Made by a program: the position numbers and the translations under genes. This document shows, piece by piece, positions 8,427 to 24,793 of a DNA stretch of 24,793 bases. This DNA comes from a virus. The notes under the pieces are model-generated. The model was not told the origin of the DNA. It searched no databases and saw only the letters and a list, made by a program, of their open reading frames with translations. Position 1 is the stretch's first letter; every line of letters begins with the position of its first letter. The stretch spans positions 1 through 24,793 of IMG/VR virus record IMGVR_UViG_3300005915_000106. One strand, 5' to 3'.

Positions 8427-8864
8427 CTATCCCCCAATTTTTGAAAGTGTAAAAACTGTCTCTTGCCCGTCGATATCCCGGCGCTCTACTTTCCATTTCT
8501 TATCGGTGTACCAGTTGTATTTTTTCCCCGTGCCGGTCGAAGGGTCGCAGTAATCGAATGAGCCCAGCGTAAAAAAATGAAAGTGCGTCGGGTCTTGGTA
8601 TGATTGCTCGGCCCTAAAATATGTAGTTCTAATAAACATCTTGCCGCCCGGCTTTACAATCCGCCAGCACTCATCAAGAAACGGAAACACAAGAATCATG
8701 TGCTCTATAATATCGGTCGCTATCACGTTATCAAATTCATTCTTCTTGAACGGCCACGGCATCACCGTCAAGTCATGCACAACGTCGGCGGCGTCGGTCT
8801 TCCGGAAATCAACATTTACGGCGTCCTTTATTCCCTTGTCTCCGCATCCGAGATTAACATTCAC
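8427..8864 (-). CDS. Class I SAM-dependent methyltransferase
   Basis: A 145-residue, compact Rossmann methyltransferase of the type found near sugar-biosynthesis genes. Motif I is VNLGCGDKG at residues 3-11 and binds SAM; VNVDF follows as the second strand, then FDNVIATDIIEH (motif IV region) and WRIVKPGGKMFI (motif VI). The start is GTG, with AAGGAG 6 nt upstream, and overlaps the glycosyltransferase stop (GTGA). At 145 residues it is shorter than usual (200-250), but the fold core is intact. Substrate unknown. Tight coupling to the glycosyltransferase suggests that they act on the same glycan. Confidence 0.85.
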   Translation of the reverse strand: MNVNLGCGDKGIKDAVNVDFRKTDAADVVHDLTVMPWPFKKNEFDNVIATDIIEHMILVFPFLDECWRIVKPGGKMFIRTTYFRAEQSYQDPTHFHFFTLGSFDYCDPSTGTGKKYNWYTDKKWKVERRDIDGQETVFTLSKIGG

Positions 8865-9865
8865 GCGATGCTCCTTTCTAAAATCTCAATCAGCCTGTCG
8901 GCTGATTTCTCCCAGGTAAAGTGTTCTCTCATTACCCATGCGGCTGTTATCCCTTTTTCAAGAGCCTCATCGTAATGAGTGTATACTTCATACATTCTGT
9001 CAACAACAGATTCTATCTTCGCCGACGGTGCAAAGCACGGCTCAAGGTCGCCGTCGTCAGGATTCATGATGTGTGTCTCAATCATTTCATACTCTACCGG
9101 ATAAGCATAGTCATTAGACGCCGTGTCGTTGGTTCCGCCGTAGGGCGTATAGATGCACGGCAATCCGGTAGCCATTGCCTCGCACAACGGCAGGCCCCAG
9201 CCTTCGCCCATGGTCGGCCATAGGAAGCAATTGGCATAATGGTACAGCGCCGCCATGGTCGGCAGGTCGCAACCCTCGGTCTCTTCGTTTGGCAATATCC
9301 GGTAATCGAGAAAGGCGTTCTTTGTTACTTGTGTGAGCTTAGGCTCTTTCTCATATGAAGTCATCTTCATTACAAGGTGCGCCTTGTCTGACAGTTCCGG
9401 GTATCGTTTGTTCCACAATTCCCACGCCTGCGCAATATGGGTAGTGCCTTTACGCGGGTTGTCGTCGCCGACAAACATGAAAGTAAACGGTTCTTTTTTC
9501 TCTCTCTCGAAATATGGGTATTGAACGGAGTCAACGCCAAGGGGGCATATATCAATCGGCGTATCTGTTGACGCTGAAAAAACCTTCTTGTTATCTGTGC
9601 ACGGCACTATAATCCGGTCCGCTTTGTCAAGAAATTGTTTCCACTGTGCAGGCACCCGGTCAAACTCGAACATCGTAAACAGCACGTTGGTTTTGAATCG
9701 CCATAGGTAGAAGCGAAAAGGAGGCATTGCCTGTAAGCATATCTCTGCACTCGCGTCCAGTTCGACACCGGCATGTATCGCGGCTTTCATCATCTTTCGC
9801 ATGAAAGTTGTATAGCCAAAGCATGAGCCGATCCCGTTGTAACTGAGTGGTACGGATACTTTCAT
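8861..9865 (-). CDS. GT4-family glycosyltransferase
   Basis: A 334-residue GT-B-fold glycosyltransferase. The C-terminal nucleotide-sugar domain shows FMFVGDDNPRKG at residues 129-140 and the retaining GT4 signature EGWGLPLCE (E221 to E229, the EX7E motif), followed by AMATGLPCIYTPYGG. The N-terminal acceptor domain begins with GIGSCFGYTTFMRKM. It would transfer a sugar from a nucleotide donor to an unknown acceptor. It sits between the tail terminator and the tail tube gene, translationally coupled to the methyltransferase, so glycosylation of virion tail proteins is one reasonable idea; modification of host surface glycan or phage DNA is an alternative. RBS GAGGAG lies 6 nt upstream of the ATG. 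Confidence 0.92.
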   Translation of the reverse strand: MKVSVPLSYNGIGSCFGYTTFMRKMMKAAIHAGVELDASAEICLQAMPPFRFYLWRFKTNVLFTMFEFDRVPAQWKQFLDKADRIIVPCTDNKKVFSASTDTPIDICPLGVDSVQYPYFEREKKEPFTFMFVGDDNPRKGTTHIAQAWELWNKRYPELSDKAHLVMKMTSYEKEPKLTQVTKNAFLDYRILPNEETEGCDLPTMAALYHYANCFLWPTMGEGWGLPLCEAMATGLPCIYTPYGGTNDTASNDYAYPVEYEMIETHIMNPDDGDLEPCFAPSAKIESVVDRMYEVYTHYDEALEKGITAAWVMREHFTWEKSADRLIEILERSIA

Positions 9866-13012: not shown

Positions 13013-13768
13013 TTACTGGCGATTTTGCCAGATTTTAACATAGTCGATATCGATGAGCGCCGCGGTACTTCCGGCTGTAATGTATCCGCTTATCGTGACA
13101 CATAAATCATCCGTTGTGGTTATTGCAAGCAAGTGCTCCGCAACAAGGGCGCCGTCAATGAAGTATCTGGCGTTTCCTGCCGCGTCAAGTTGTATCCGGT
13201 AGATATGATAGGTTGCCAATACTAAATCAGTACCGGTGTCCGTAGATTGCGGCGTGCCGTTTGCCAGTACGCTGAGTGCGTAGATGTCATCGGTGGTTTC
13301 GGCCCTGACGCCGAACATCGCCGAGTCATCAGATACGCTGTCAACTGTTCCGGTTGCGAGCGAGTCATCAGCCCAGGAAATCTCCCCGGTTCCTTCGGTG
13401 GCTACGTCAGTAAATCCAAAGTTGAAAAATAGTGCGGCGTCAGAGGTCGTAGTCTTTAGCCTGATTTCACACCCGCATGCCTGCGCAGCTTCCCACACAA
13501 GTGCTGTCGATATTTCATTACGGCTGTCTACGTCGGTACCGGTGTTGATCCGGTATACGCCATTTACCGCGGCAGTGATATCCGCGGCTGCGGCAGTTCC
13601 CTCGGTGGCCTCGGTCCAGTCGTTTGTAGCGTCGACCGCAATTCCCAAAAAGTCATCGATGAATATTACCGGGAAGCCAAGCGGAAACAATGTCTCGTAT
13701 GTTTCGCCATCGTAGAAGGCCATATTCCCGGTACCTTGCCAGTTGTAGGTAGATTTAGTTTTTCCCAT
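13013..13768 (-). CDS. ConA/LamG-like beta-sandwich virion protein (copy 2 of duplicated pair)
   Basis: A 251-residue protein, the same length as the next gene upstream and alignable to it end to end without gaps. Shared blocks include DATNDWTEATEGT, NFGFTDVATEG, MFGVRAET, PQSTDTGTDLVLAT, NARYFIDGALVAEHLLA and the identical C-terminus IDIDYVKIWQNRQ. The 'HIYRIQLD..GNARYFIDG' element is the typical LamG/ConA strand pair carrying the 'v.fyiDG' turn. No catalytic residues are visible. Location just after the capsid gene suggests a head decoration protein. RBS AAGGGGG upstream. Confidence 0.8.
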   Translation of the reverse strand: MGKTKSTYNWQGTGNMAFYDGETYETLFPLGFPVIFIDDFLGIAVDATNDWTEATEGTAAAADITAAVNGVYRINTGTDVDSRNEISTALVWEAAQACGCEIRLKTTTSDAALFFNFGFTDVATEGTGEISWADDSLATGTVDSVSDDSAMFGVRAETTDDIYALSVLANGTPQSTDTGTDLVLATYHIYRIQLDAAGNARYFIDGALVAEHLLAITTTDDLCVTISGYITAGSTAALIDIDYVKIWQNRQ

Positions 13769-13779
13769 AATCCACCCCC

Positions 13780-14535
13780 TTACTGTCTGTTCTGCCAGAT
13801 TTTGACGTAATCAATATCAATGAATGCGGCAGTTGATCCGGCGGTAATCAGTCCGGCAAGAGTAAAACAAAGATCGTCGGTCGTGGTAACTGCGAGCAAG
13901 TGTTCTGCTACCAATGCGCCGTCAATGAAATACCGAGCGTTGCCGAGCGAGTCAAGTTGTATCCGGTAGATATGCGAAGTCGCCAAGACAAGATCGGTAC
14001 CGGTGTCTGTTGACTGCGGTACGCCATCGGCGATGGTACTCAGCGCGTATATGTCGTCGGAGGTTTCGGCGCGTACTCCAAACATAACCGCGTCGCTTGC
14101 CCATGCATCAACTGTTCCGGTTGCGAGTGAAGCATCTTTAAATGATATCTTCGCGGCGCCTTCGGTTGCAACGTCGGTAAACCCGAAGTTCATGAAAAGA
14201 CTCGCGTCGGAAGTCTTTGTCTCTACCTTGACTTCACATCCGCAAGATTGGGCGGCCTCCCATGCAAGCGCCGTTGAAATCTCGGTTCTTTTATCCGCCG
14301 CGGTACCAGTATCTATTTCGTAGAAACCGTTCACCCTGGCCGTGATATCCTGCGCGTTCGAGGTTCCCTCGGTTGCTTCCGTCCAATCGTTCGTCGCGTC
14401 GGTCGCGGGTTTCAAAAAGTCATCAAAAAAGACAACTGGAAAACCCATCGGCATAAGTGTCTCGAAAGTATGTCCATCATAAAACACCTGGCGCCCGGTA
14501 TTCTGCCAGTTATAATCTGCTTTTGTTCGTCCCAT
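13780..14535 (-). CDS. ConA/LamG-like beta-sandwich virion protein (copy 1 of duplicated pair)
   Basis: A 251-residue paralogue of the downstream gene. It starts MGRTKADYNWQNTGRQVFYD where the copy reads MGKTKSTYNWQGTGNMAFYD. Divergence is spread over the length, with changes in the first third and around residues 125-145 (FKDASLATGTVDAWASDAVM versus WADDSLATGTVDSVSDDSAM), and a conserved end. This pattern implies an old tandem duplication with selection to keep the fold. Probable lectin-like decoration protein. RBS AAAGGAAGG lies upstream of the ATG. Confidence 0.8.
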   Translation of the reverse strand: MGRTKADYNWQNTGRQVFYDGHTFETLMPMGFPVVFFDDFLKPATDATNDWTEATEGTSNAQDITARVNGFYEIDTGTAADKRTEISTALAWEAAQSCGCEVKVETKTSDASLFMNFGFTDVATEGAAKISFKDASLATGTVDAWASDAVMFGVRAETSDDIYALSTIADGVPQSTDTGTDLVLATSHIYRIQLDSLGNARYFIDGALVAEHLLAVTTTDDLCFTLAGLITAGSTAAFIDIDYVKIWQNRQ

Positions 14536-16409: not shown

Positions 16410-17277
16410 TTTCTGCCCCCTTTAGATAATTTGCGTTTTCTCTCATGCGCACTAAAACACCATACGGTATCTCAGCCTGCACGTCGGTTTCTTCTACGGT
16501 CTCAACAGGCTCTCCCTGTGATTCCTCCGGCTCAGGCTCCCCCTGGTCGGTTTCAAAACCATGTGCCGCGATATCGACAGATTCCTTTTTGCTGAATCCT
16601 GAATCTCTCAGGAGTCCTTCAAAGTCTCTGATTGTCGCGGGCTTTTTATTTCCTTCTGCGCTTCCCTGGAATCTCTCCGGGACGTGCTTATAGGCATATC
16701 GTGAATCGATGGATATGGAAGCAGCAACCGCCTCATGCTCGACTTGCTCATCGGCAAATCCGGCCTCAACGGCCTCGTCGGCAGTAAACCATGTATCTGC
16801 ATCCATGTACTCCTTTATCTCGTCGGCGCTCAAATTAGAATGCGCCTCATATATATTTACTAATTCGCCGCCTATCTTGTCAAGCAGCTCGGCGCTTTGC
16901 CTCATGTCGTCGGCCCCGCCCATGGCAAATGTCCACGGGTTGTGAATCATGAAAAATCCTGCGGTGTCGATTGTGAGAGAAGAACCGGCAAGAGCTATGA
17001 TCGAGGCAGCGGAAGCCGCGAGCGCCATCACTTCGACAGATACCTTTTCGCGTTCGGTTGCAATAATGTTGTATATGGCAATGCCGTCAAACACGTCGCC
17101 GCCGGGTGAGTTGATGAGAATATGTATCGACGCCTTGTCCTTTATTGCGTCAAAGTCTTTCTTGAAATCCGCCGCGGTAACTGAATCGCCCCACCATGAC
17201 GCGCCGATGTCGCCGAATATCGATATCTCCGCGGTGTCTTCTTTCGCCTGAATCTTATACCATTTTTTCGATTTCAC
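16387..17277 (-). CDS. Head maturation protease, ClpP (S14) type
   Basis: A ClpP-like serine protease that should cut the capsid N-terminal scaffold segment. Signature elements are ISIFGDIGASWWGDSV, IHILINSPGGDVFDGIAIYN (the oxyanion-loop NSPGG), MALAASAASIIALAG with the nucleophilic serine in AAS, and GFFMIHNPWTFAMG with the catalytic histidine. The C-terminal 80 residues are Glu/Asp-rich and may be self-processed. I chose the GTG at 17277 because AGGAGG lies 5 nt upstream; an ATG at 17313 lacks a comparable site and would overlap the portal further. Overlap with the portal gene is 23 nt, and with the capsid gene also 23 nt. Confidence 0.94.
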   Translation of the reverse strand: MKSKKWYKIQAKEDTAEISIFGDIGASWWGDSVTAADFKKDFDAIKDKASIHILINSPGGDVFDGIAIYNIIATEREKVSVEVMALAASAASIIALAGSSLTIDTAGFFMIHNPWTFAMGGADDMRQSAELLDKIGGELVNIYEAHSNLSADEIKEYMDADTWFTADEAVEAGFADEQVEHEAVAASISIDSRYAYKHVPERFQGSAEGNKKPATIRDFEGLLRDSGFSKKESVDIAAHGFETDQGEPEPEESQGEPVETVEETDVQAEIPYGVLVRMRENANYLKGAENAHKTES

Positions 17278-18556
17278 TTTCCCCTCCTGCTCCGCCTGCA
17301 TCGCCGCCGCCATTCTTTGCCGCGTCGCTCGCAGCGTCCATCATGTTCGACGGTTGCCAGAATCGTCTACCTATTTCTTCGTCGTCAATCGGATTCATGC
17401 CGATAGCAAAGCGGCCCTCGTCGCCGTTAATGAGTCCGGCAAAGCGGCCTATCCGCTGTGTTTCCATAACCGTTTTCATATCGCCCCGCTGCAGCTGGTT
17501 CATGTCATGCTGCGCAAAACCTTTTTTTCTCTCGATAGGCGTGAGCAGTTGCGTATCAACCGCTTTCTCGAAACGCTCCGCCCATGGTCTCAGCGTGTCG
17601 GTAATCCATTCAATCTGCTGGTGCTCGATATTTGAAAATGTTGCGTTCGTCAAATCTTTGAGCTTGTGAAGCGGCATGTTCAGAATGCGTGCCATTTCGC
17701 TGAGTTGAAAAATCCGGCTTGCGAGATATTCGGCGTCGGCCATAGACATTGAAAACGGCGTGTAGGTCATGCCCTCTTCAAGTACAATCACTTTACCGGC
17801 GTTACTTGATCCGCCATATGCGCTAGCGAAAGATTCCTTTAGGGTTTCCTTTGCCTCGGGAGATAGCGATTCCGGATGTATGAGTGCACCCGAACTATTT
17901 ACGCCCTTATCGATAAAGCTGTTTGAAAAGTTCTGCTGTGATAGCCCGAGCTTGACCGCTTCCCTGTGGAGCGTTATCAACGAGTACCCGGTATATGCAT
18001 CCGGCCCAAACCCGGAAAGGTTAAATATCTCGGTATATGATAATGGGCGCTCTCCGCCTTTCTTCGGGCGGTACAGATATACCGGCTCGCCCGAATCTTT
18101 TACCTCAACCCGCATACGCGCCGGGTCGAGCAAGTATACCGCGGTCGGTCTGCCGTAAGTATCACGCTGAACATATGAATATGAGTTACCCCAGTTGATA
18201 GCCTGCATGAATACTGACTCGCGCCACTTAAGAGAATTGACAAACGGGTTCGCCATGCTGTTCATGACGCCGTAAACTGGATGCTCCGCCCATCGCCTCC
18301 GCTTCATTTCGCCTTCGCGTCTCAGTAATGGGCACGCAACCGACGCGAGTGACTGCGATATCTGCATCACCCCGGAAAAGTAGGCGGTGTATGCCATCGC
18401 GCCGGGATCGTGGCCGGCTTGTGTGGAATCCATCCACCTGCCCATGTCGTCAAGAGATTGCGGAGACCACTGGCCTGATGCGCGGAAGACACTTAAGGCC
18501 GCGCGGAATCGTTGAGTTAAGTTAAGGTTTCGGGAGTTTTGCCTTGCTTTCGCCAA
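17255..18556 (-). CDS. Portal protein, HK97 family
   Basis: A 433-residue portal that would form the dodecameric DNA-packaging channel. Typical elements are HPVYGVMNSMANPF, FMQAINWGNSYSYVQRD, YLLDPARMRVE, EIFNLSGFGPDAYTGYSLI, the stem region NFSNSFIDKGVNSSGAL, and FQLSEMARILNMPLHKLKDL followed by the FSNIEHQQIEWITDTLRPW helix. The C-terminus is Gly/Ala/Asp-rich. The start is TTG with CGGAG 6 nt upstream. Unlike most phages, where the portal directly follows the large terminase, about 1.6 kb of guide-array cassette separates the two. Confidence 0.96.
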   Translation of the reverse strand: MAKARQNSRNLNLTQRFRAALSVFRASGQWSPQSLDDMGRWMDSTQAGHDPGAMAYTAYFSGVMQISQSLASVACPLLRREGEMKRRRWAEHPVYGVMNSMANPFVNSLKWRESVFMQAINWGNSYSYVQRDTYGRPTAVYLLDPARMRVEVKDSGEPVYLYRPKKGGERPLSYTEIFNLSGFGPDAYTGYSLITLHREAVKLGLSQQNFSNSFIDKGVNSSGALIHPESLSPEAKETLKESFASAYGGSSNAGKVIVLEEGMTYTPFSMSMADAEYLASRIFQLSEMARILNMPLHKLKDLTNATFSNIEHQQIEWITDTLRPWAERFEKAVDTQLLTPIERKKGFAQHDMNQLQRGDMKTVMETQRIGRFAGLINGDEGRFAIGMNPIDDEEIGRRFWQPSNMMDAASDAAKNGGGDAGGAGGESEIEKMV

Positions 18557-18640: not shown

Positions 18641-18658
18641 AGCCCCCTTTCGGGGGCT
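18641..18658 (-). terminator. Hairpin terminator at end of second guide array
   Basis: The minus strand reads AGCCCCC-GAAA-GGGGGCT, a perfect 7-bp stem with a GNRA-type tetraloop, followed by TTCCC, so the U-tract is weak. The 5' arm is shared with the last, altered repeat box AAGCGAGCCC (18663-18654). It closes the transcript of the guide-array/tas cassette before the portal gene. Confidence 0.7.
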
Positions 18659-18807
18659 CGCTTTATCTGACTGGGTTCCTTCCGGAATCTGGCTCGCTTC
18701 AGATTTGTGGTTTACTCATATGGGTTGGCTCGCTCCAGCAATCTGGTTTTCTCCCGGGTTTTGGCTCGCTTTTGTCTAATGGTTTTCTTGAAAGCCCTGG
18801 CCCTCTT
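18654..18807 (-). repeat. TIGR-type guide array 2 (four 36-nt units)
   Basis: Read on the minus strand, box 1 (AAGCGAGCCA) begins at 18807, 18771, 18735 and 18699, with a closing copy AAGCGAGCCC at 18663; spacing is exactly 36 nt. Box 2 follows each box 1 after 8 nt: AAGAAAACCA, GAGAAAACCA, GAGTAAACCA, AAGGAACCCA. Box 1 variants are AAGAGGGCCA (first, decayed) and GAGCGAGCCA. The 8-nt variable pairs are GGGCTTTC/TTAGACAA, AAACCCGG/GATTGCTG, ACCCATAT/CAAATCTG and GATTCCGG/GTCAGATA. All pairs differ, as expected for guides and not for structural repeats. The first box begins one base after the stop codon of the tas gene, so array and gene share a transcript. Two conserved and two variable segments per 36 nt match dual-spacer TIGR arrays. 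Confidence 0.88.
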
Positions 18808-18808
18808 T

Positions 18809-19717
18809 CTAAAACACCCAACCTCTTTCAGTCGGGCTTATTATTCCCGTATGTCCTAAATACTCCTCTGCGTATAGCGAGCGTGTCGGGAGTCCTCGAA
18901 TAGTTCTGCCGACAAACCAATAATCTGCAAGTATATGTTTCATAACTGCCCGTAATGCCGCGCCATGTCTGTGGCATGGCTTCGTATCTTTCCAGGCTAC
19001 CTCGACAAGCATTCCTTGCGTGTTCCTGCTCTTTGTTATTTTCTCGCTTATCGCCAGCCGCTCCTTGGTCCTGTCGTACACTTCCCGGTATGCGCCGCGA
19101 GTTTTCATCATTGAATCGGCGGTCCTCCACAGGGCGGTTCTGAGTTTCTTATTCCCGCCACCCGCTTCGCCTTTAGTATATCTTTGATGGCTCGCGGTAT
19201 GCAGTCCGGTGTAACTCCAGGTAGCCGACGCGGTAGTTGCTTTTTCGAGATCGATATAAACCGAGAGATACGCGACGGTCATTTCCCCGAGCCCCTTAAC
19301 GCCCATGGCTGACTTGATAAGTGAATCCTCCTCTTGGTGCTCTTTGATCCACTTAACAATCTGCTTCTCTGCATCAACGAGAATGGGCAAAACCTCATCA
19401 ACCGCGTTTCCGAGATGCTCCTCGGTTTCTTCTCTTGAGTAATCAGTCCTCCGCTTGAAGGCGAGTAGTTGATTATTGATTTTGTTCTTCAGCTTCAACA
19501 TTTGCTCCCGGTCGTCAATCAACGCCTTAAGTTCGTTGTGGTCCTCTTCTCGCAACCGGAGAATGCCATGCTCCTCCATGTGTGCTACCGGGTCAACGAC
19601 TTCATAGTTGTCGGGGTCATACGTCCCGCCTTGCGCCTTCGGTTTCGCCCGGTGCGTGTCGTACTCTGCAAAATCTTTTGTAATTCCTTTCGCCTCTTTC
19701 AGTGCTACTTTTGCCAT
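18809..19717 (-). CDS. tas: TasA-like Nop/IS110-type RNA-guided DNA-binding protein
   Basis: A 302-residue protein flanked on both sides by 36-nt dual-spacer arrays. Residues about 1-55 are a charged N-terminus, 55-130 are helical/coiled (NELKALIDDREQMLKLKNKI and on), and 135-265 resemble the C-terminal domain of IS110-family transposases, which is related to the Nop domain: a helix-hairpin-helix-like GVKGLGEMTVAYLSVYIDLE (139-158), then WSYTGL (167-172) and AGGGNKKLRTALWRTADSMM (185-204), where the IS110 pattern is 'kG...lRraL..aA'. The RuvC-like DEDD half of IS110 proteins is absent, and no HNH motif is seen, so it fits the nuclease-less TasA class and not TasR or TasH. It would bind 36-nt guides and DNA without cutting. 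RBS AAGGAG, 6 nt before the ATG. The alternative reading is a decayed IS110-like transposase, but the arrays argue against it. Confidence 0.85.
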   Translation of the reverse strand: MAKVALKEAKGITKDFAEYDTHRAKPKAQGGTYDPDNYEVVDPVAHMEEHGILRLREEDHNELKALIDDREQMLKLKNKINNQLLAFKRRTDYSREETEEHLGNAVDEVLPILVDAEKQIVKWIKEHQEEDSLIKSAMGVKGLGEMTVAYLSVYIDLEKATTASATWSYTGLHTASHQRYTKGEAGGGNKKLRTALWRTADSMMKTRGAYREVYDRTKERLAISEKITKSRNTQGMLVEVAWKDTKPCHRHGAALRAVMKHILADYWFVGRTIRGLPTRSLYAEEYLGHTGIISPTERGWVF

Positions 19718-19745
19718 TTGTTTCTCCTTATGGCTTTTGGTTTTG

Positions 19746-20043
19746 TGGCTCGCTTTAAAATCTTGGGTTCCTTACGTTGAATGGCTCGCTTAGGTCAATT
19801 GGGTTTCTCGCAGCTTGTAGCTCGCTTGAGCGATTTGGGTGTCTTAATCGATGTGGCTCGCTTGCAATAAATGGGCGTCTCATAGTCTTTGACTCGCTTA
19901 AGCAGCATGGGTGCTTTATCGTAAGTGGCTCGCTTAATGGAAATAGGGATCTCCGCTCGTTTGGCTCGCTTGCGCCCATTGGGGTTCTCTCGTGACGTGG
20001 CTCGCTTAAAAAAAATGGGTGTCTTACTCTGCCTGGCATAAAA
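19746..20043 (-). repeat. TIGR-type guide array 1 (eight 36-nt units)
   Basis: On the minus strand, box 1 (AAGCGAGCCA, with single changes such as AAGCGAGTCA and AAGCGAGCTA) begins at 20007, 19971, 19935, 19899, 19863, 19827, 19791 and a closing copy at 19755; spacing is exactly 36 nt. A decayed box 1 (only GCCA kept) precedes these at 20043. Box 2, consensus RAGNNNCCCA, lies 8 nt after each box 1. The 8-nt variable pairs are GGCAGAGT/TTTTTTTT, CGTCACGA/ATGGGCGC, AACGAGCG/TTTCCATT, CTTACGAT/TGCTGCTT, AAGACTAT/TTTATTGC, CATCGATT/AATCGCTC, CAAGCTGC/ATTGACCT and TTCAACGT/AGATTTTA. Both boxes share the form RAG....CCA, so the unit is an imperfect dimer of 18 nt. The array lies between the cassette promoter/leader and the tas gene. 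Known TIGR guides are about 36 nt with two short spacers, which is the same geometry. Confidence 0.9.
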
Positions 20044-20084
20044 AAAGCCCCTCCATCTTGTGTCCCGTGGTGAGCGGGGTGGCT
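20040..20084 (-). terminator. Terminator-like hairpin / possible attenuator before array 1
   Basis: The minus strand shows AGCC-A-CCCC (20084-20076) pairing with GG-A-GGGGCT (20054-20046), giving eight GC-rich pairs with one bulged A on each side, followed by a run of seven T (20046-20040). The T-run merges into the decayed first box of array 1. As an intrinsic terminator it would cut the leader transcript before the array. It may end a short RNA or limit array expression. Confidence 0.55.
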
Positions 20085-20159
20085 CCGTGAGAAACCAATA
20101 ACACAAGCCTGGAAAGGCCATTTTTCTCACGGAATCTGTATCGCCGGGCACCACCCAGC
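20085..20159 (-). ncRNA. Structured leader RNA of the guide-array cassette
   Basis: Between the promoter and the terminator-like hairpin lies a noncoding stretch of about 75 nt. It contains a perfect 11-bp inverted repeat (20123-20133 with 20084-20094; core CCGTGAGAAA) enclosing a smaller perfect hairpin GCCT-N4-AGGC (20107-20118). Near its 5' end is GGGTGGTGCCC, another short stem. Together with the following hairpin the leader would be strongly folded. The 11-bp and terminator hairpins compete at base 20084. Its function is unknown: an attenuator leader, a separate small RNA or a processing signal for the array are all possible. Confidence 0.5.
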
Positions 20160-20165
20160 ATCATC

Positions 20166-20194
20166 ATTATTGCATATGGCGTGCCCGCTGTCAA
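20166..20194 (-). promoter_or_regulatory. Strong sigma70-type promoter for the guide-array/tas cassette
   Basis: The minus strand reads TTGACA (20194-20189), a 17-nt spacer, and AATAAT (20171-20166). The -35 is the full consensus and the -10 matches TATAAT at five of six positions. It begins 3 nt after the large terminase stop codon. Transcription would start near 20159 and run into the leader and array 1. It is the best promoter I see in the window. Confidence 0.85.
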
Positions 20195-20197
20195 GGG

Positions 20198-21892
20198 TTA
20201 AAACGAAAGCACCTCGACGCCGTGGTCCTCATATACGCTGCGCTTCTTGACATTCCTCACCGCCATTTCCAAAGCCATGAGCTGAGAAAACACCGCGTCT
20301 ATGTGTTTGCTCGATTGTCGTGTCTCGGGTTTGACCGGCCTGATGTTTCCATTCGTGTCGCGCTTTATTTCGGCGTTACTTACTTCCCACGATACCACCG
20401 GGTTAGGCAATACCGATAGGGTTTTGTTAATCACTTTTGTTTCGAGGTTCTTTGCCGCAGGTGATATCAGCTTCCATCCCTGCGAAAACTCGACAAGGTA
20501 TTTCTCCCATCCAAGTTTTTCAAGGTTGGCTACAAACTGCGATGAGTTAAAGGGATCAAAGGCTATCTCTTTGATATCATATAGATCCATATCCTTCTCA
20601 AGTTCCGCCTGGATGAAATCATAATCGATGGTACGCCCCGGCGTGAGTATGCAATGATTATCCTCTGCCATCTTCCGCCACTCGAAACGCTCCTTTTTCT
20701 CGCGCTCCGCTATGCCGTACCCGGGTAGGAATATCTTTGTAAACATTCTAAACCCGCCCTCCCATGCAAACGCGAGCGAATAGGCCGCGGTATCGATCAC
20801 GGTAGCCAGGTCAATCCCGGCACACGCGGGCGCGCCTTTCATTTCCTCTATGTCAAACTGCTTTTCGATCGCCGACCAGTCAGTATCTTTAATCCAGCCG
20901 AAGCGGTTCTTTGTCCAGATATTGAGATTCTTGTTTTTGAATTTGCTTTGCTCGCTCGCCATGTCGAGAGCTTTTTGAAAGTCGCTCTCTATTGCCTTTA
21001 CTTTCTTGCTCACGCCGAGACAGGGATTAGCTTTCAGCCATACGCTCTTGTCGGTCCATTCATCTTTTTCGTCGAGCGTGTAGATAATCCCGAAGTAAGT
21101 TTCATTCGTTGCCTTTTTGCTGAGTACCCGCTGTGCATATTCTTCCTCATCAACACACGGTACGTCCGGGTCAAAGCCTGCGGTAGTGATAATAATAGTC
21201 ATCGGTTGCGCTCGGGACGACATACCATCAGACATAATGCGGTACACACCGTCGGTCTTATGCGCGTGGTATTCGTCGATGATTGCACAATGCACGTTTC
21301 TACCGTCAAGGGAATCCACGTCTGCAGCAACGGCCTTGAATGAGGAGGTTTCTGTATCGGCGTCTGTAAGTGCATGCCTGGAAAGTTTTATAACTTTTTG
21401 TAATTCTTTATTCTTTGCAACCATGGCGCGGGCATAGTCGCTGAAAACGATCCGCGCCTGTTCTTTTGTCGTAGCCGCTGAGTAAACTTCTGCTCCGCCC
21501 TCACCGTCAGCAATCAGCATGTAAAGAGCGATTGCCGCTACCCATGTACTCTTCCCGTTCTTCTTCGCTACCTCGATAAACACCGTCCGGAACCTGCGGT
21601 AATCGTCCCGGTCAAGCCATCCGAAAATAACCCATGTAATGAAAATCTGCCACGGCTGCAGGATAAGCGGCTTCTTGTCGAGCTCCCCTTTCACGTGCAC
21701 GCAGTAATAATGCACAAACTCAATTACATGCTCGGCTCTCGCCTCATCGAAGTGATACGGAAACTGTTCGGTATCCTGTTTTTTCAGATTGTCTTTATGC
21801 CGCTTCGCCGCGAGCTTCACCCACTTGCAGGCTACTACCTCGCCGGATAGAACATCGGTTATATACTTTTCAGCGGTCTGTTTTATGTTCAT
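20198..21892 (-). CDS. terL: Terminase large subunit
   Basis: A 564-residue packaging motor and nuclease of the HK97/P27-partner type (Terminase_1). The ATPase domain has Walker A VAKKNGKST (about residues 108-116) and Walker B AIIDEYH with D206 and E207, plus a C-motif-like IIITTAG. The nuclease domain has the RNase H-like acids GIDLA (D361), AFDPFNS (D446) and HIDAVFSQ (about D530). The start overlaps the PAPS-reductase-like gene (ATGA). The stop is followed at once by the promoter of the guide-array cassette. It cuts and pumps the phage DNA through the portal. Confidence 0.96.
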   Translation of the reverse strand: MNIKQTAEKYITDVLSGEVVACKWVKLAAKRHKDNLKKQDTEQFPYHFDEARAEHVIEFVHYYCVHVKGELDKKPLILQPWQIFITWVIFGWLDRDDYRRFRTVFIEVAKKNGKSTWVAAIALYMLIADGEGGAEVYSAATTKEQARIVFSDYARAMVAKNKELQKVIKLSRHALTDADTETSSFKAVAADVDSLDGRNVHCAIIDEYHAHKTDGVYRIMSDGMSSRAQPMTIIITTAGFDPDVPCVDEEEYAQRVLSKKATNETYFGIIYTLDEKDEWTDKSVWLKANPCLGVSKKVKAIESDFQKALDMASEQSKFKNKNLNIWTKNRFGWIKDTDWSAIEKQFDIEEMKGAPACAGIDLATVIDTAAYSLAFAWEGGFRMFTKIFLPGYGIAEREKKERFEWRKMAEDNHCILTPGRTIDYDFIQAELEKDMDLYDIKEIAFDPFNSSQFVANLEKLGWEKYLVEFSQGWKLISPAAKNLETKVINKTLSVLPNPVVSWEVSNAEIKRDTNGNIRPVKPETRQSSKHIDAVFSQLMALEMAVRNVKKRSVYEDHGVEVLSF

Positions 21893-22671
21893 TCAAATAA
21901 TACTGTCTGGTCTGTTTCTTCTTCTGTGTTGACGCCAAGCCACCACCAGAAAAACGCCTCTCCGCTTGCCCATCTGTCAACGCTGGTGCTTCCGTCTTTC
22001 TTTGGCTTAGATTTCCTGTCTGCCCATAACAACTCAAAGTGCTTGATAAAAGCCTTAGTCATTCTTGGGTATCTCTTTGCTTGCTCTAACCGTTCCTTAC
22101 CGGCATTAGGGCAGAACAGGCACCCGATACGCTTCCAACCTTCATCGTAAAGCGAACAGTACGGAAGCTCTCTTTCTTTGATAAACTCCCAAACATCATC
22201 ATCGCTCCAATTGATAATAGGATTTATGTATATCTTGCCGGTGTCCTTGTAGCACGGCTCTATGGCCCGCCTCCCTGCTCTTTTAGCAGACTCTGCAGCC
22301 CTGATACCCGTAATAACTCGCCTACCAGCTCCGCCATTCTCTTTGTACTTGGCGCAACACCAACGTGCTTGACGTAACGGCGCACCCTGAATAACAAGCT
22401 GTTTGAGTAGGGGCTTTTCGGGATGCTCAAAGATAACGTCTTTGTGATGTTGCTTGATGAACCGTACCAATTCGGGAGGGTCAATCGTGGTTACTGAGTA
22501 GTGAGAGTCATGTTTAACGCCTGCCATTTTCGCCAATTCTTTGATGCATATAGAATCCTTACCCCCACTGAACGCAAGATAGTACCCCTCGGGCGGTTCA
22601 TGGTCCTGCAAGAACTGCAGCGACTCGGCCACCTTGTCTATCACGCCGAATAGTCCGTTTTCTCTAAGCAT
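21889..22671 (-). CDS. PAPS-reductase-family (PP-loop) protein
   Basis: A 260-residue member of the adenosine-phosphosulfate reductase/DndC-like group. Visible motifs are the PP-loop SGGKDS (residues 35-40), WCCAKYK (104-110), GIRAAESAKRAGR (122-134), and PIINWSDDDVWEFIKERELPYC followed by GCLFCP (C184, C187). The Cys pair at 105/106 and the CxxC resemble the iron-sulfur cysteines of this family. Possible roles are sulfur transfer to nucleic acid, modulation of host sulfate assimilation or phosphorothioation-like modification. It is unusual to find it between the two terminase subunits. RBS GGGAGAGG lies 3-4 nt before the ATG; the stop overlaps terL (ATGA). Confidence 0.9.
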   Translation of the reverse strand: MLRENGLFGVIDKVAESLQFLQDHEPPEGYYLAFSGGKDSICIKELAKMAGVKHDSHYSVTTIDPPELVRFIKQHHKDVIFEHPEKPLLKQLVIQGAPLRQARWCCAKYKENGGAGRRVITGIRAAESAKRAGRRAIEPCYKDTGKIYINPIINWSDDDVWEFIKERELPYCSLYDEGWKRIGCLFCPNAGKERLEQAKRYPRMTKAFIKHFELLWADRKSKPKKDGSTSVDRWASGEAFFWWWLGVNTEEETDQTVLFE

Positions 22672-23353: not shown

Positions 23354-24727
23354 TTAAAACGTTCGTAATATTCCGTTACAGTCTTTCATATATTCAAACC
23401 CCGCCGTACCGGGTTCAATTTTCTCATAGTACCTGCTCGGTATTTTGCTCCGGACATATTCGGATAGCCGTGACTGAGATACGTTTGCCGTCTTGCTGTT
23501 GAACACAATACCCTTATAGTCTACGTCTCCAGCATATCTATTTACCAGCATACGCTTTATGACTGCATATCCTGCGGTTATTCCCGGACGTATTGTCAGG
23601 CGGATAGAGTCGCCATCATAAAGCGTACCGGGACTGATGTAATCAGTATAGCTGTATTCACAAGACGGTTTTTCATACTGCATCGGCGTGCACATTTCGG
23701 CGGAAAACGGGTTGAGTTTTAACGCGATGTATAGTTTAGCATCAGCCTTTCTGTCTAACTCAGAAACCATTTTTGTCAGCGCCGCGATATCGCGCATAAC
23801 CGTATCCGGTGTTTCCCACGGAAAACCTATAATACAATTGCAGATAAGCGCGACGCCGCCCGATACGGTATCAAGTATTTCCGCTATGGTGTTTTTTACA
23901 TCCGCATCCTTGAGCGGTCGGTTTACCCGATGCCGCGTTTCTTCCGTAAGGCCATCGAATGCGCTTATGTACATCCCCGGCTTTTTAATGTCTAAGTAAT
24001 TCCAAAAATCTTCTACGTGCTTCCCGCCCTGTGCTGTATAGTGCTGATTGGTTTTCCGTGTCCAGGTATACTGACAGTAAGCACACCGCATCTTGCAGCC
24101 GCAGGCCGATTCTCCCGGCATCAGATATTTATATTTTCCATATTCATATTCTCCCTCGATATCCGGGTCTTTGCTCTTCCTCCACACGTTCGGGAAGTCT
24201 GCCCCGGCGAGGATAAAGTTAATCTGCCCCTCGGCCCTGCCCCACACCGCAACGTCGATATAGTCCTTTACTACCTTGATGTTATGCACTCCCGCTCCGC
24301 CGATGATTATCTCTGCGTTTCTACTTTCCGGTGCCCTTGTTTCGAGAGAAAAAATGAGGTTTTCGATATCATACACCGACGTGATCGGTACAAGGATATT
24401 GTCATATTGATTTATTTGTTCAGGAAAGCAGAAGTCATAGGGCCGGTTTATCTCGCCAAGGATTCCGCGCAACCCGAGGTATGGCAAATCTCCGAATGTC
24501 TTGCCGCCTATCTTTCGGCGCTGCGTAAAGTCTGACAGCATGAGCACGGCGGTATCTGCGCGATTGCGCTTTACAAGGAGGTTGGGAATAAACTTAAATG
24601 ATAAATCTTTCCCGCGGCTCACGGCGGTCCTGCACTCCCGGCACGCCCCCTCGTATATGCCGCGATCCTTTCTGTAGTAAAATGCTGACAGAGGCTTTAG
24701 CTGTTTGCACTTCGTACACTTTTTCAT
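23354..24727 (-). CDS. Radical SAM protein with N-terminal zinc ribbon and B12-binding-like region
   Basis: About 457 residues from the ATG at 24727; an open frame extends to 24790, but GGGGG 13 nt upstream of the ATG and the zinc ribbon right after it favour the shorter form. Residues 4-32 hold CTKC...CREC, a ribbon common in phage DNA-associated enzymes. At 140-170 IIIGGAGVHNIKVVKDYIDV and VWGRAEGQ resemble the 'GG......d.vv.GegE' part of B12-binding radical SAM proteins. The cluster motif is CKMRCAYC (C211, C215, C218; CX3CX2C), followed by ISAFDGLTEETRHRVNRPL and CNCIIGFPWETP, typical for the radical SAM barrel. Substrate unknown; methylation or another C-H modification is plausible. It lies directly upstream of the packaging genes. 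Confidence 0.85.
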   Translation of the reverse strand: MKKCTKCKQLKPLSAFYYRKDRGIYEGACRECRTAVSRGKDLSFKFIPNLLVKRNRADTAVLMLSDFTQRRKIGGKTFGDLPYLGLRGILGEINRPYDFCFPEQINQYDNILVPITSVYDIENLIFSLETRAPESRNAEIIIGGAGVHNIKVVKDYIDVAVWGRAEGQINFILAGADFPNVWRKSKDPDIEGEYEYGKYKYLMPGESACGCKMRCAYCQYTWTRKTNQHYTAQGGKHVEDFWNYLDIKKPGMYISAFDGLTEETRHRVNRPLKDADVKNTIAEILDTVSGGVALICNCIIGFPWETPDTVMRDIAALTKMVSELDRKADAKLYIALKLNPFSAEMCTPMQYEKPSCEYSYTDYISPGTLYDGDSIRLTIRPGITAGYAVIKRMLVNRYAGDVDYKGIVFNSKTANVSQSRLSEYVRSKIPSRYYEKIEPGTAGFEYMKDCNGILRTF

Positions 24728-24793
24728 ACGATTATCATAACCCCCTACAAAATAACTTTCTAATCTGCAATTTTGACCGCGTGCACGCAAGCC

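What the first reader, a model, noticed from the sequence alone, without database searches (positions are those of the whole stretch)
18641..20194. Phage-borne TIGR-Tas-like RNA-guided cassette between large terminase and portal
Seen: a near-consensus promoter, exact 36-nt repeats with two fixed and two variable segments on both sides of one gene, and a hairpin terminator. The gene product resembles the C-terminal IS110/Nop-type domain. Established: TIGR-Tas systems use arrays of about 36-nt dual-spacer guides and Nop-domain Tas proteins and have been reported in phages. Inference: this is such a system, carried as a late-operon morphon. Its role could be regulation, competition with other phages or plasmids, or host targeting.
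Basis: partly seen in the sequence, partly recalled or inferred. Interest (0 to 1): 0.97.

Follow-up and report, generated by a model that had tools for sequence, protein, structure and literature searches.

The report
Phage TIGR-TasH dual-guide nuclease cassette
This phage carries, between two of its virion-assembly genes, a complete copy of the recently described TIGR-TasH system, a small DNA-cutting protein flanked by twelve encoded two-part guide RNAs; the system is already known, and what the guides aim at remains unknown here as elsewhere.

Summary
ORF 18809-19717 (minus strand, 302 aa) is a TasH. It passes the NCBIfam TIGR-Tas model, matches the solved TasH at E 6.5e-108, and its predicted model superposes on a TasH-tigRNA-DNA cryo-EM structure at Z 28.5. 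[quoted passage not shown] The edge/loop motif gives 19 hits in the window and 0 in 580 kb of control phage DNA. Fifteen related TasH loci, all viral, carry such arrays; none turned up in 84,980 cellular genomes or in plasmids. The cassette has its own promoter and sits between TerL and portal, as in one unrelated phage; other relatives sit elsewhere. Guides do not match their own phage or relatives above control, and four whole-IMG/VR target scans gave chance-like hits. Most likely it is an RNA-guided endonuclease used against competing mobile DNA; mechanism is inferred from published homologues, role unproven. New member of a known kind. Relatives' arrays show unit duplication with point divergence, bearing on how guides arise.

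The parts
20166..20194 (-). sigma70-type promoter, TTGACA-17-AATAAT with TG before the second hexamer
   Evidence: 11 of 12 consensus, only such site in the window
20043..20158 (-). leader with hairpin CCGTGAGAAA/TTTCTCACGG and a GGGGC-T7 terminator-like end before the first guide; possible attenuator
   Evidence: sequence; fold z = -2.07; no Rfam match; function inferred only
19746..20042 (-). upstream TIGR array: 8 guides (A/B): GGCAGAGTA/TTTTTTTTA, CGTCACGAG/ATGGGCGCA, AACGAGCGG/TTTCCATTA, CTTACGATA/TGCTGCTTA, AAGACTATG/TTTATTGCA, CATCGATTA/AATCGCTCA, CAAGCTGCG/ATTGACCTA, TTCAACGTA/AGATTTTAA
18809..19717 (-). tasH, 302 aa
   Evidence: NCBIfam NF052498 118.3 bits, cut-off 100; PDB TasH E 6.5e-108; AlphaFold2 model against 9w04_B Z 28.5
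19565..19675 (-). HNH (beta-beta-alpha metal finger) region, residues 15-51: D20, H22, R23, N37, H46, H50
   Evidence: colicin E7/E9 alignment; D20, R23, N37 invariant and H46, H50 at least 90% in 16 TasH; predicted E20-23, E38-41, H43-49
18812..19546 (-). Nop-type domain: coiled coil (residues 58-127) and IS110-like C-terminal RNA-binding region
18654..18806 (-). downstream TIGR array: 4 guides (A/B): GGGCTTTCA/TTAGACAAA, AAACCCGGG/GATTGCTGG, ACCCATATG/CAAATCTGA, GATTCCGGA/GTCAGATAA; starts straight after the tasH stop
18641..18658 (-). hairpin fused to the last (truncated) edge repeat; terminator-like but only a short U-run on the transcribed strand
20198..21892 (-). flanking gene: terminase large subunit
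   Evidence: Pfam TerL_ATPase and TerL_nuclease
17255..18556 (-). flanking gene: portal protein
   Evidence: Pfam Phage_portal 2.9e-79

Best explanation
A complete TIGR-TasH cassette carried by a tailed phage. One transcript (promoter - leader - 8 guides - tasH - 4 guides - hairpin) would yield twelve 36-nt tigRNAs, each carrying spacers A and B of 9 nt (effectively 8 plus a purine). A TasH dimer would bind one tigRNA by the box D (AG) and box C (CCA) motifs present in both the edge and loop repeats. It would open an approximately 18-bp DNA site reading 5'-A-rc(B)-3', pairing A to one strand and B to the other, and its two HNH domains would cut both strands. Anatomy and homology are shown here. 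RNA processing, pairing geometry and cleavage are taken from published work on CGphi29 TasH and on TasR. The role I think most likely, cutting DNA of competing mobile elements in the shared host, is inference, at about 50%.
For: NCBIfam TIGR_Tas_endo above cut-off. Alignment over residues 20-301 with solved TasH, E 6.5e-108; Foldseek to TasH-tigRNA-dsDNA E 1.5e-28 and Z 28.5 over 300 residues. HNH residues conserved, including against the CGphi29 protein, whose HNH-dependent, tigRNA-guided cleavage was shown (PMC12045711). Arrays have the defining layout of 9-nt blocks, and the motif is absent from 580 kb of control DNA. All 15 further TasH loci and the distant Tas L020 have such arrays beside the gene. 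The guides match neither their own contig nor relatives above control, as expected for guides against foreign DNA. TasH of this clade was found only in viral sequence.
Against: No natural target was found. Published tests with TasR showed no block of phage infection or conjugation, only plasmid loss. Expression, processing and cleavage by this cassette are untested. H22 is D in some TasH, including CGphi29, so the exact catalytic set differs slightly. The window is a 24.8-kb fragment, so self-targets elsewhere in the genome cannot be excluded.
Confidence: 0.88

Rival explanations
1. Self-regulation or genome handling: guides direct TasH to the phage's own DNA, for example to control late genes or concatemers.
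For: Cassette lies in the virion-assembly gene cluster with the same orientation as its neighbours; a second, unrelated TasH phage (L018) has it between TerL and portal too.
Against: No exact guide match in the window or in relatives' loci; 1-mismatch counts are like those of re-paired guides. Position varies widely among relatives, including replication modules.
Confidence: 0.1
2. RNA-guided counterpart of a homing HNH endonuclease: it cuts cassette-less relatives to spread itself or exclude their alleles.
For: HNH nuclease gene with own promoter at module boundaries, at different sites in different phages; such places are typical of free-standing HNH genes (own knowledge).
Against: No close cassette-less relative exists in the collection, so neither an empty site nor guide matches to one could be tested. 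Many different guides per array do not look like one homing site.
Confidence: 0.2
3. Host takeover or counter-defence: guides cut host chromosome or defence islands.
For: Faure et al. list counter-defence as a possible role.
Against: No host is known; TasH of this clade was not found in cellular genomes, so no host could be inferred.
Confidence: 0.15
4. An IS110-type transposase remnant with chance repeats.
For: Pfam gives only a sub-threshold Transposase_20 hit and PHROGs labels the family 'transposase'.
Against: IS110 model far below its cut-off (23 against 140 bits); HNH instead of a DEDD/RuvC N-terminus; arrays conserved across TasH relatives.
Confidence: 0.01

Closest known systems
SpTIGR-TasH of Salicola phage CGphi29 (PMC12045711); solved TasH in PDB 9w04, 9vzx, 9w02, 9w03, 21kl
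   Same: N-terminal HNH plus Nop domain, about 57-59% identity over 281 residues; edge repeat AGCGAGCCA shared; 36-nt units; in a tailed phage's head/packaging genes.
   Different: Gene between two arrays here, one downstream array in CGphi29; loop repeat AGNNN[AC]CCA against AGACAACCA; guides all different; TerL/portal site against a site after the major head protein; H22 where CGphi29 has D; N-terminus about 15 residues shorter.
TIGR-TasR (PDB 9mty)
   Same: Nop domain and coiled coil (Z 19.0), dual-spacer 36-nt guides.
   Different: RuvC nuclease instead of HNH; UG/CCA boxes; about 20% identity.
IS110-family recombinases IS621 and ISCro4 (8wt6, 9t56)
   Same: C-terminal RNA-binding fold (Z about 16) and two-part guide logic.
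   Different: DEDD/RuvC-like domain, a single bridge RNA, transposition; curated IS110 model not met.
Box C/D snoRNP Nop5 (1nt2)
   Same: Weak fold resemblance (Z 7.7).
   Different: RNA modification, K-turn RNAs, no nuclease.

Membership tests
TIGR-Tas | Nop-domain Tas protein | tested here: met
   NF052498 118.3 bits over cut-off 100; Foldseek and VIA matches to TasH and TasR
TIGR-Tas | array of two alternating 8-12-nt repeats with 9-nt spacers next to tas | tested here: met
   9/9/9/9 layout in 12 units; motif 0 hits in 580 kb of control DNA
[quoted passage not shown]
   AG...CCA in both repeats
TIGR-Tas | 5'-truncated first edge repeat; 3'-truncated last edge followed by a terminator | tested here: inconclusive
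   first units truncated in both arrays and last downstream edge fused to a hairpin; that hairpin has a short U-run and the upstream array ends in a full edge repeat
TIGR-Tas | array processed to 36-nt tigRNAs bound by Tas | not testable with these tools
   needs small-RNA sequencing
TIGR-Tas | tandem-spacer DNA targeting | not testable with these tools
   needs biochemistry; natural-target searches were negative
TasH subtype | N-terminal HNH nuclease with conserved active-site residues | tested here: met
   colicin HNH alignment; conserved D20, R23, N37, H46, H50; predicted beta-beta-alpha
IS110 transposase | full IS110 family model (DEDD plus Transposase_20) | tested here: not met
   NF033542 23.2 bits against cut-off 140; only the C-terminal part aligns
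CRISPR-Cas | single-type repeats of 25-36 nt with cas genes | tested here: not met
   repeats are two alternating 9-nt blocks; no cas gene among the annotated neighbours

The most novel reading that the evidence does not exclude
TIGR-TasH is a mobile, phage-only RNA-guided weapon cassette whose guides are made by duplicating array units in register and letting copies drift by point mutation or recombination, rather than by capture from invaders. It would thus track escape variants of competitor phages sharing the host.
Probability: 0.2. Interest if true: 0.75.

Novelty: new member of a known kind. Interest (0 to 1): 0.42.

Why it matters
It adds a well-preserved, intact TasH locus of independent lineage to a system whose natural targets and guide origins are open questions (PMC12045711). 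The comparison of its loci gives two testable handles. First, spacers within an array are related to each other in register (A to A, B to B), which points to growth by unit duplication. Second, the 9th spacer base is strongly biased, mostly to a purine, so the effective guide is probably 8+8 nt plus a box D purine, and target searches should be built that way.

Tried and rejected
Self- and relative-targeting: 203 guides against all Tas loci in both orientations, gaps 0-4, up to 2 mismatches; no excess over re-paired guides. IMG/VR scan for guide CGTCACGAG/ATGGGCGCA: 66 hits in unrelated genes, spread over gap lengths (27/17/22), no co-occurring second guide. Three further window guides: 7, 2 and 1 hits, no shared target gene apart from near-identical contigs. 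A variant guide pair of L015 hit two homologous DNA-methyltransferase genes exactly, but other L015 guides were not enriched in those genomes: dropped as chance. Host inference: no TasH in cellular genomes or plasmids, no close phage. Rfam: nothing. PADLOC: no Tas match. Pfam alone would have missed the family.

Full report
OBSERVATION. The minus-strand ORF 18809-19717 (302 aa) lies between a terminase large subunit and a portal gene. Both sides carry 36-nt units: edge AGCGAGCCA, 9-nt spacer A, loop AGNNN[AC]CCA, 9-nt spacer B. There are 8 guides upstream and 4 downstream. Column information is 1.2-2 bits in the edge blocks and about 0.7-2 bits in the loop blocks, and low in the spacer columns except the last spacer base, which is always a purine here. 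A search for edge-N9-loop or loop-N9-edge finds 19 places in the window, all in the two arrays, and none in 580 kb of other phage DNA. Self-match at lag 36 (0.58) exceeds all 200 shuffles (at most 0.44). The promoter (TTGACA-17-AATAAT, with TG before the second hexamer) is the only site in the window with 11 of 12 matches.

WHAT IT IS. The protein passes the NCBIfam TIGR_Tas_endo model (118.3 bits, cut-off 100) and fails the IS110 model (23 of 140 bits). It aligns over residues 20-301 with the TasH in the PDB (E 6.5e-108). An AlphaFold2 model made from 15 sequences (pLDDT 85.6) matches TasH-tigRNA-dsDNA 9w04 (Foldseek E 1.5e-28; Z 28.5 over 300 residues), then TasR (Z 19.0) and IS621/ISCro4 (Z about 16). 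The N-terminal beta-beta-alpha element (E20-23, E38-41, H43-49) aligns with colicin HNH domains; D20, R23 and N37 are invariant and H46 and H50 nearly so in 16 TasH.

RELATIVES. IMG/VR yielded 16 contigs that encode a TasH relative (two, L001 and L003, are this same phage with 100% DNA identity) and one distant Tas (L020); INPHARED yielded CGphi29. Arrays with lag 36 lie beside tas in every one. L002, at 74% TasH identity, uses the same repeats but entirely different guides. Two pattern-based scans of 84,980 bacterial and archaeal genomes found no relative, nor did plasmids; the genome scans use short peptide patterns and can miss divergent members. Sites differ: TerL|portal (window, L018), minor head|major head (L002), after major head (CGphi29), near replication, helicase, primase or DNA polymerase genes (L009, L010, L012, L014, L015), baseplate hub (L013), upstream of TerL (L019). 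So the cassette behaves as a self-contained insert, not as part of one module. L011 has two further arrays, about 0.9 kb upstream and 5.2 kb downstream of the arrays that flank its tas gene, so arrays can lie away from the gene.

HOW IT PROBABLY WORKS. From Faure et al. (PMC12045711): Tas proteins copurify with 36-nt tigRNAs; spacers A and B pair with opposite strands; TasH cuts in an HNH- and guide-dependent way; TasR drove plasmid loss but did not block infection or conjugation. From the published 3' overhang and C-5 rule I infer a target strand 5'-A-(0-2 nt)-rc(B)-3'. I expect this cassette to do the same. Its purpose is inference; competition with other mobile DNA fits best with phage-only occurrence, guides that do not match self, and the plasmid-loss data.

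TARGETS. With 203 guides from 17 contigs I found no excess of paired matches in their own or related loci over re-paired guides. Four IMG/VR scans for window guides gave hits that look like chance: unrelated genes, no second guide site in the same contig at up to 1 mismatch for the first scan, none with fewer than 2 mismatches for the other three. Chance expectation could be estimated only roughly because the size of the collection is not given to me.

GUIDE ORIGIN (relatives, not the window). Within arrays, spacer pairs with at most 1 difference in 8 nt number 8 (A-A) and 10 (B-B), against about 1 each in column-shuffled arrays, while A-B pairs (2) match the control (1.5). Whole guides with at most 3 differences number 5 against 0.75 expected. 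This is what unit duplication in register followed by drift, or selection for variant targets, would leave. The paper says the origin of spacers is unknown. The window's own arrays hold no such pair.

VERDICT. Real, correctly identified, and a new member of a known kind. Interest is moderate: it confirms an intact TasH cassette, and the comparison gives leads on guide design and array growth, but no target.

Noticed in passing
window 20043-20158 (minus strand): Structured leader between the cassette's promoter and its first guide: a 10-bp hairpin (CCGTGAGAAA/TTTCTCACGG) and a GGGGC-T7 terminator-like end. It could be an attenuator or yield a short separate RNA; fold z = -2.07, no Rfam match.
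   Followed up: partly
L004, L005, L010, L011, L012, L014, L015, L016, L019, L020 arrays: Near-identical spacers within arrays, in register (A-A and B-B, not A-B), about eightfold above shuffles: guides seem to arise by unit duplication plus drift.
   Followed up: partly
all TasH arrays; L017, L020: The 9th base of both spacers is strongly biased (mostly A; G in L017 and L020), as if it belonged to box D and the guide proper were 8 nt.
   Followed up: partly
L011 8740-8900 and 16500-16650: Two extra TIGR arrays lying about 0.9 kb and 5.2 kb away from the tas-flanking arrays, the latter followed by a terminator-like hairpin.
   Followed up: partly
L004 11030-11048, L005 3614-3704: Spacer AGTAATATA is shared by arrays of two different phages with different partner spacers.
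   Followed up: no
L087-L090: Guide CGCCAGATA/ATGATGGCA of L015 matches exactly the MMAYLA codons of what looks like a conserved DNA N6-methyltransferase in two phage contigs (gene name from memory of the motif); not above chance when the array's other guides are tested.
   Followed up: yes
window 21889-22671: PAPS-reductase-like gene (Pfam 1.2e-23; also PADLOC BrxP 2e-21) between the small and large terminase genes.
   Followed up: no
window 13013-14535: Two tandem paralogous proteins (251 aa each, 75% identical), downstream of the major capsid gene; the one scanned has no Pfam match.
   Followed up: no
window 8427-9865: Methyltransferase and group 1 glycosyltransferase genes inside the tail gene region.
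   Followed up: no
window 23354-24790: ORF of 478 aa with a weak radical-SAM-like match.
   Followed up: no
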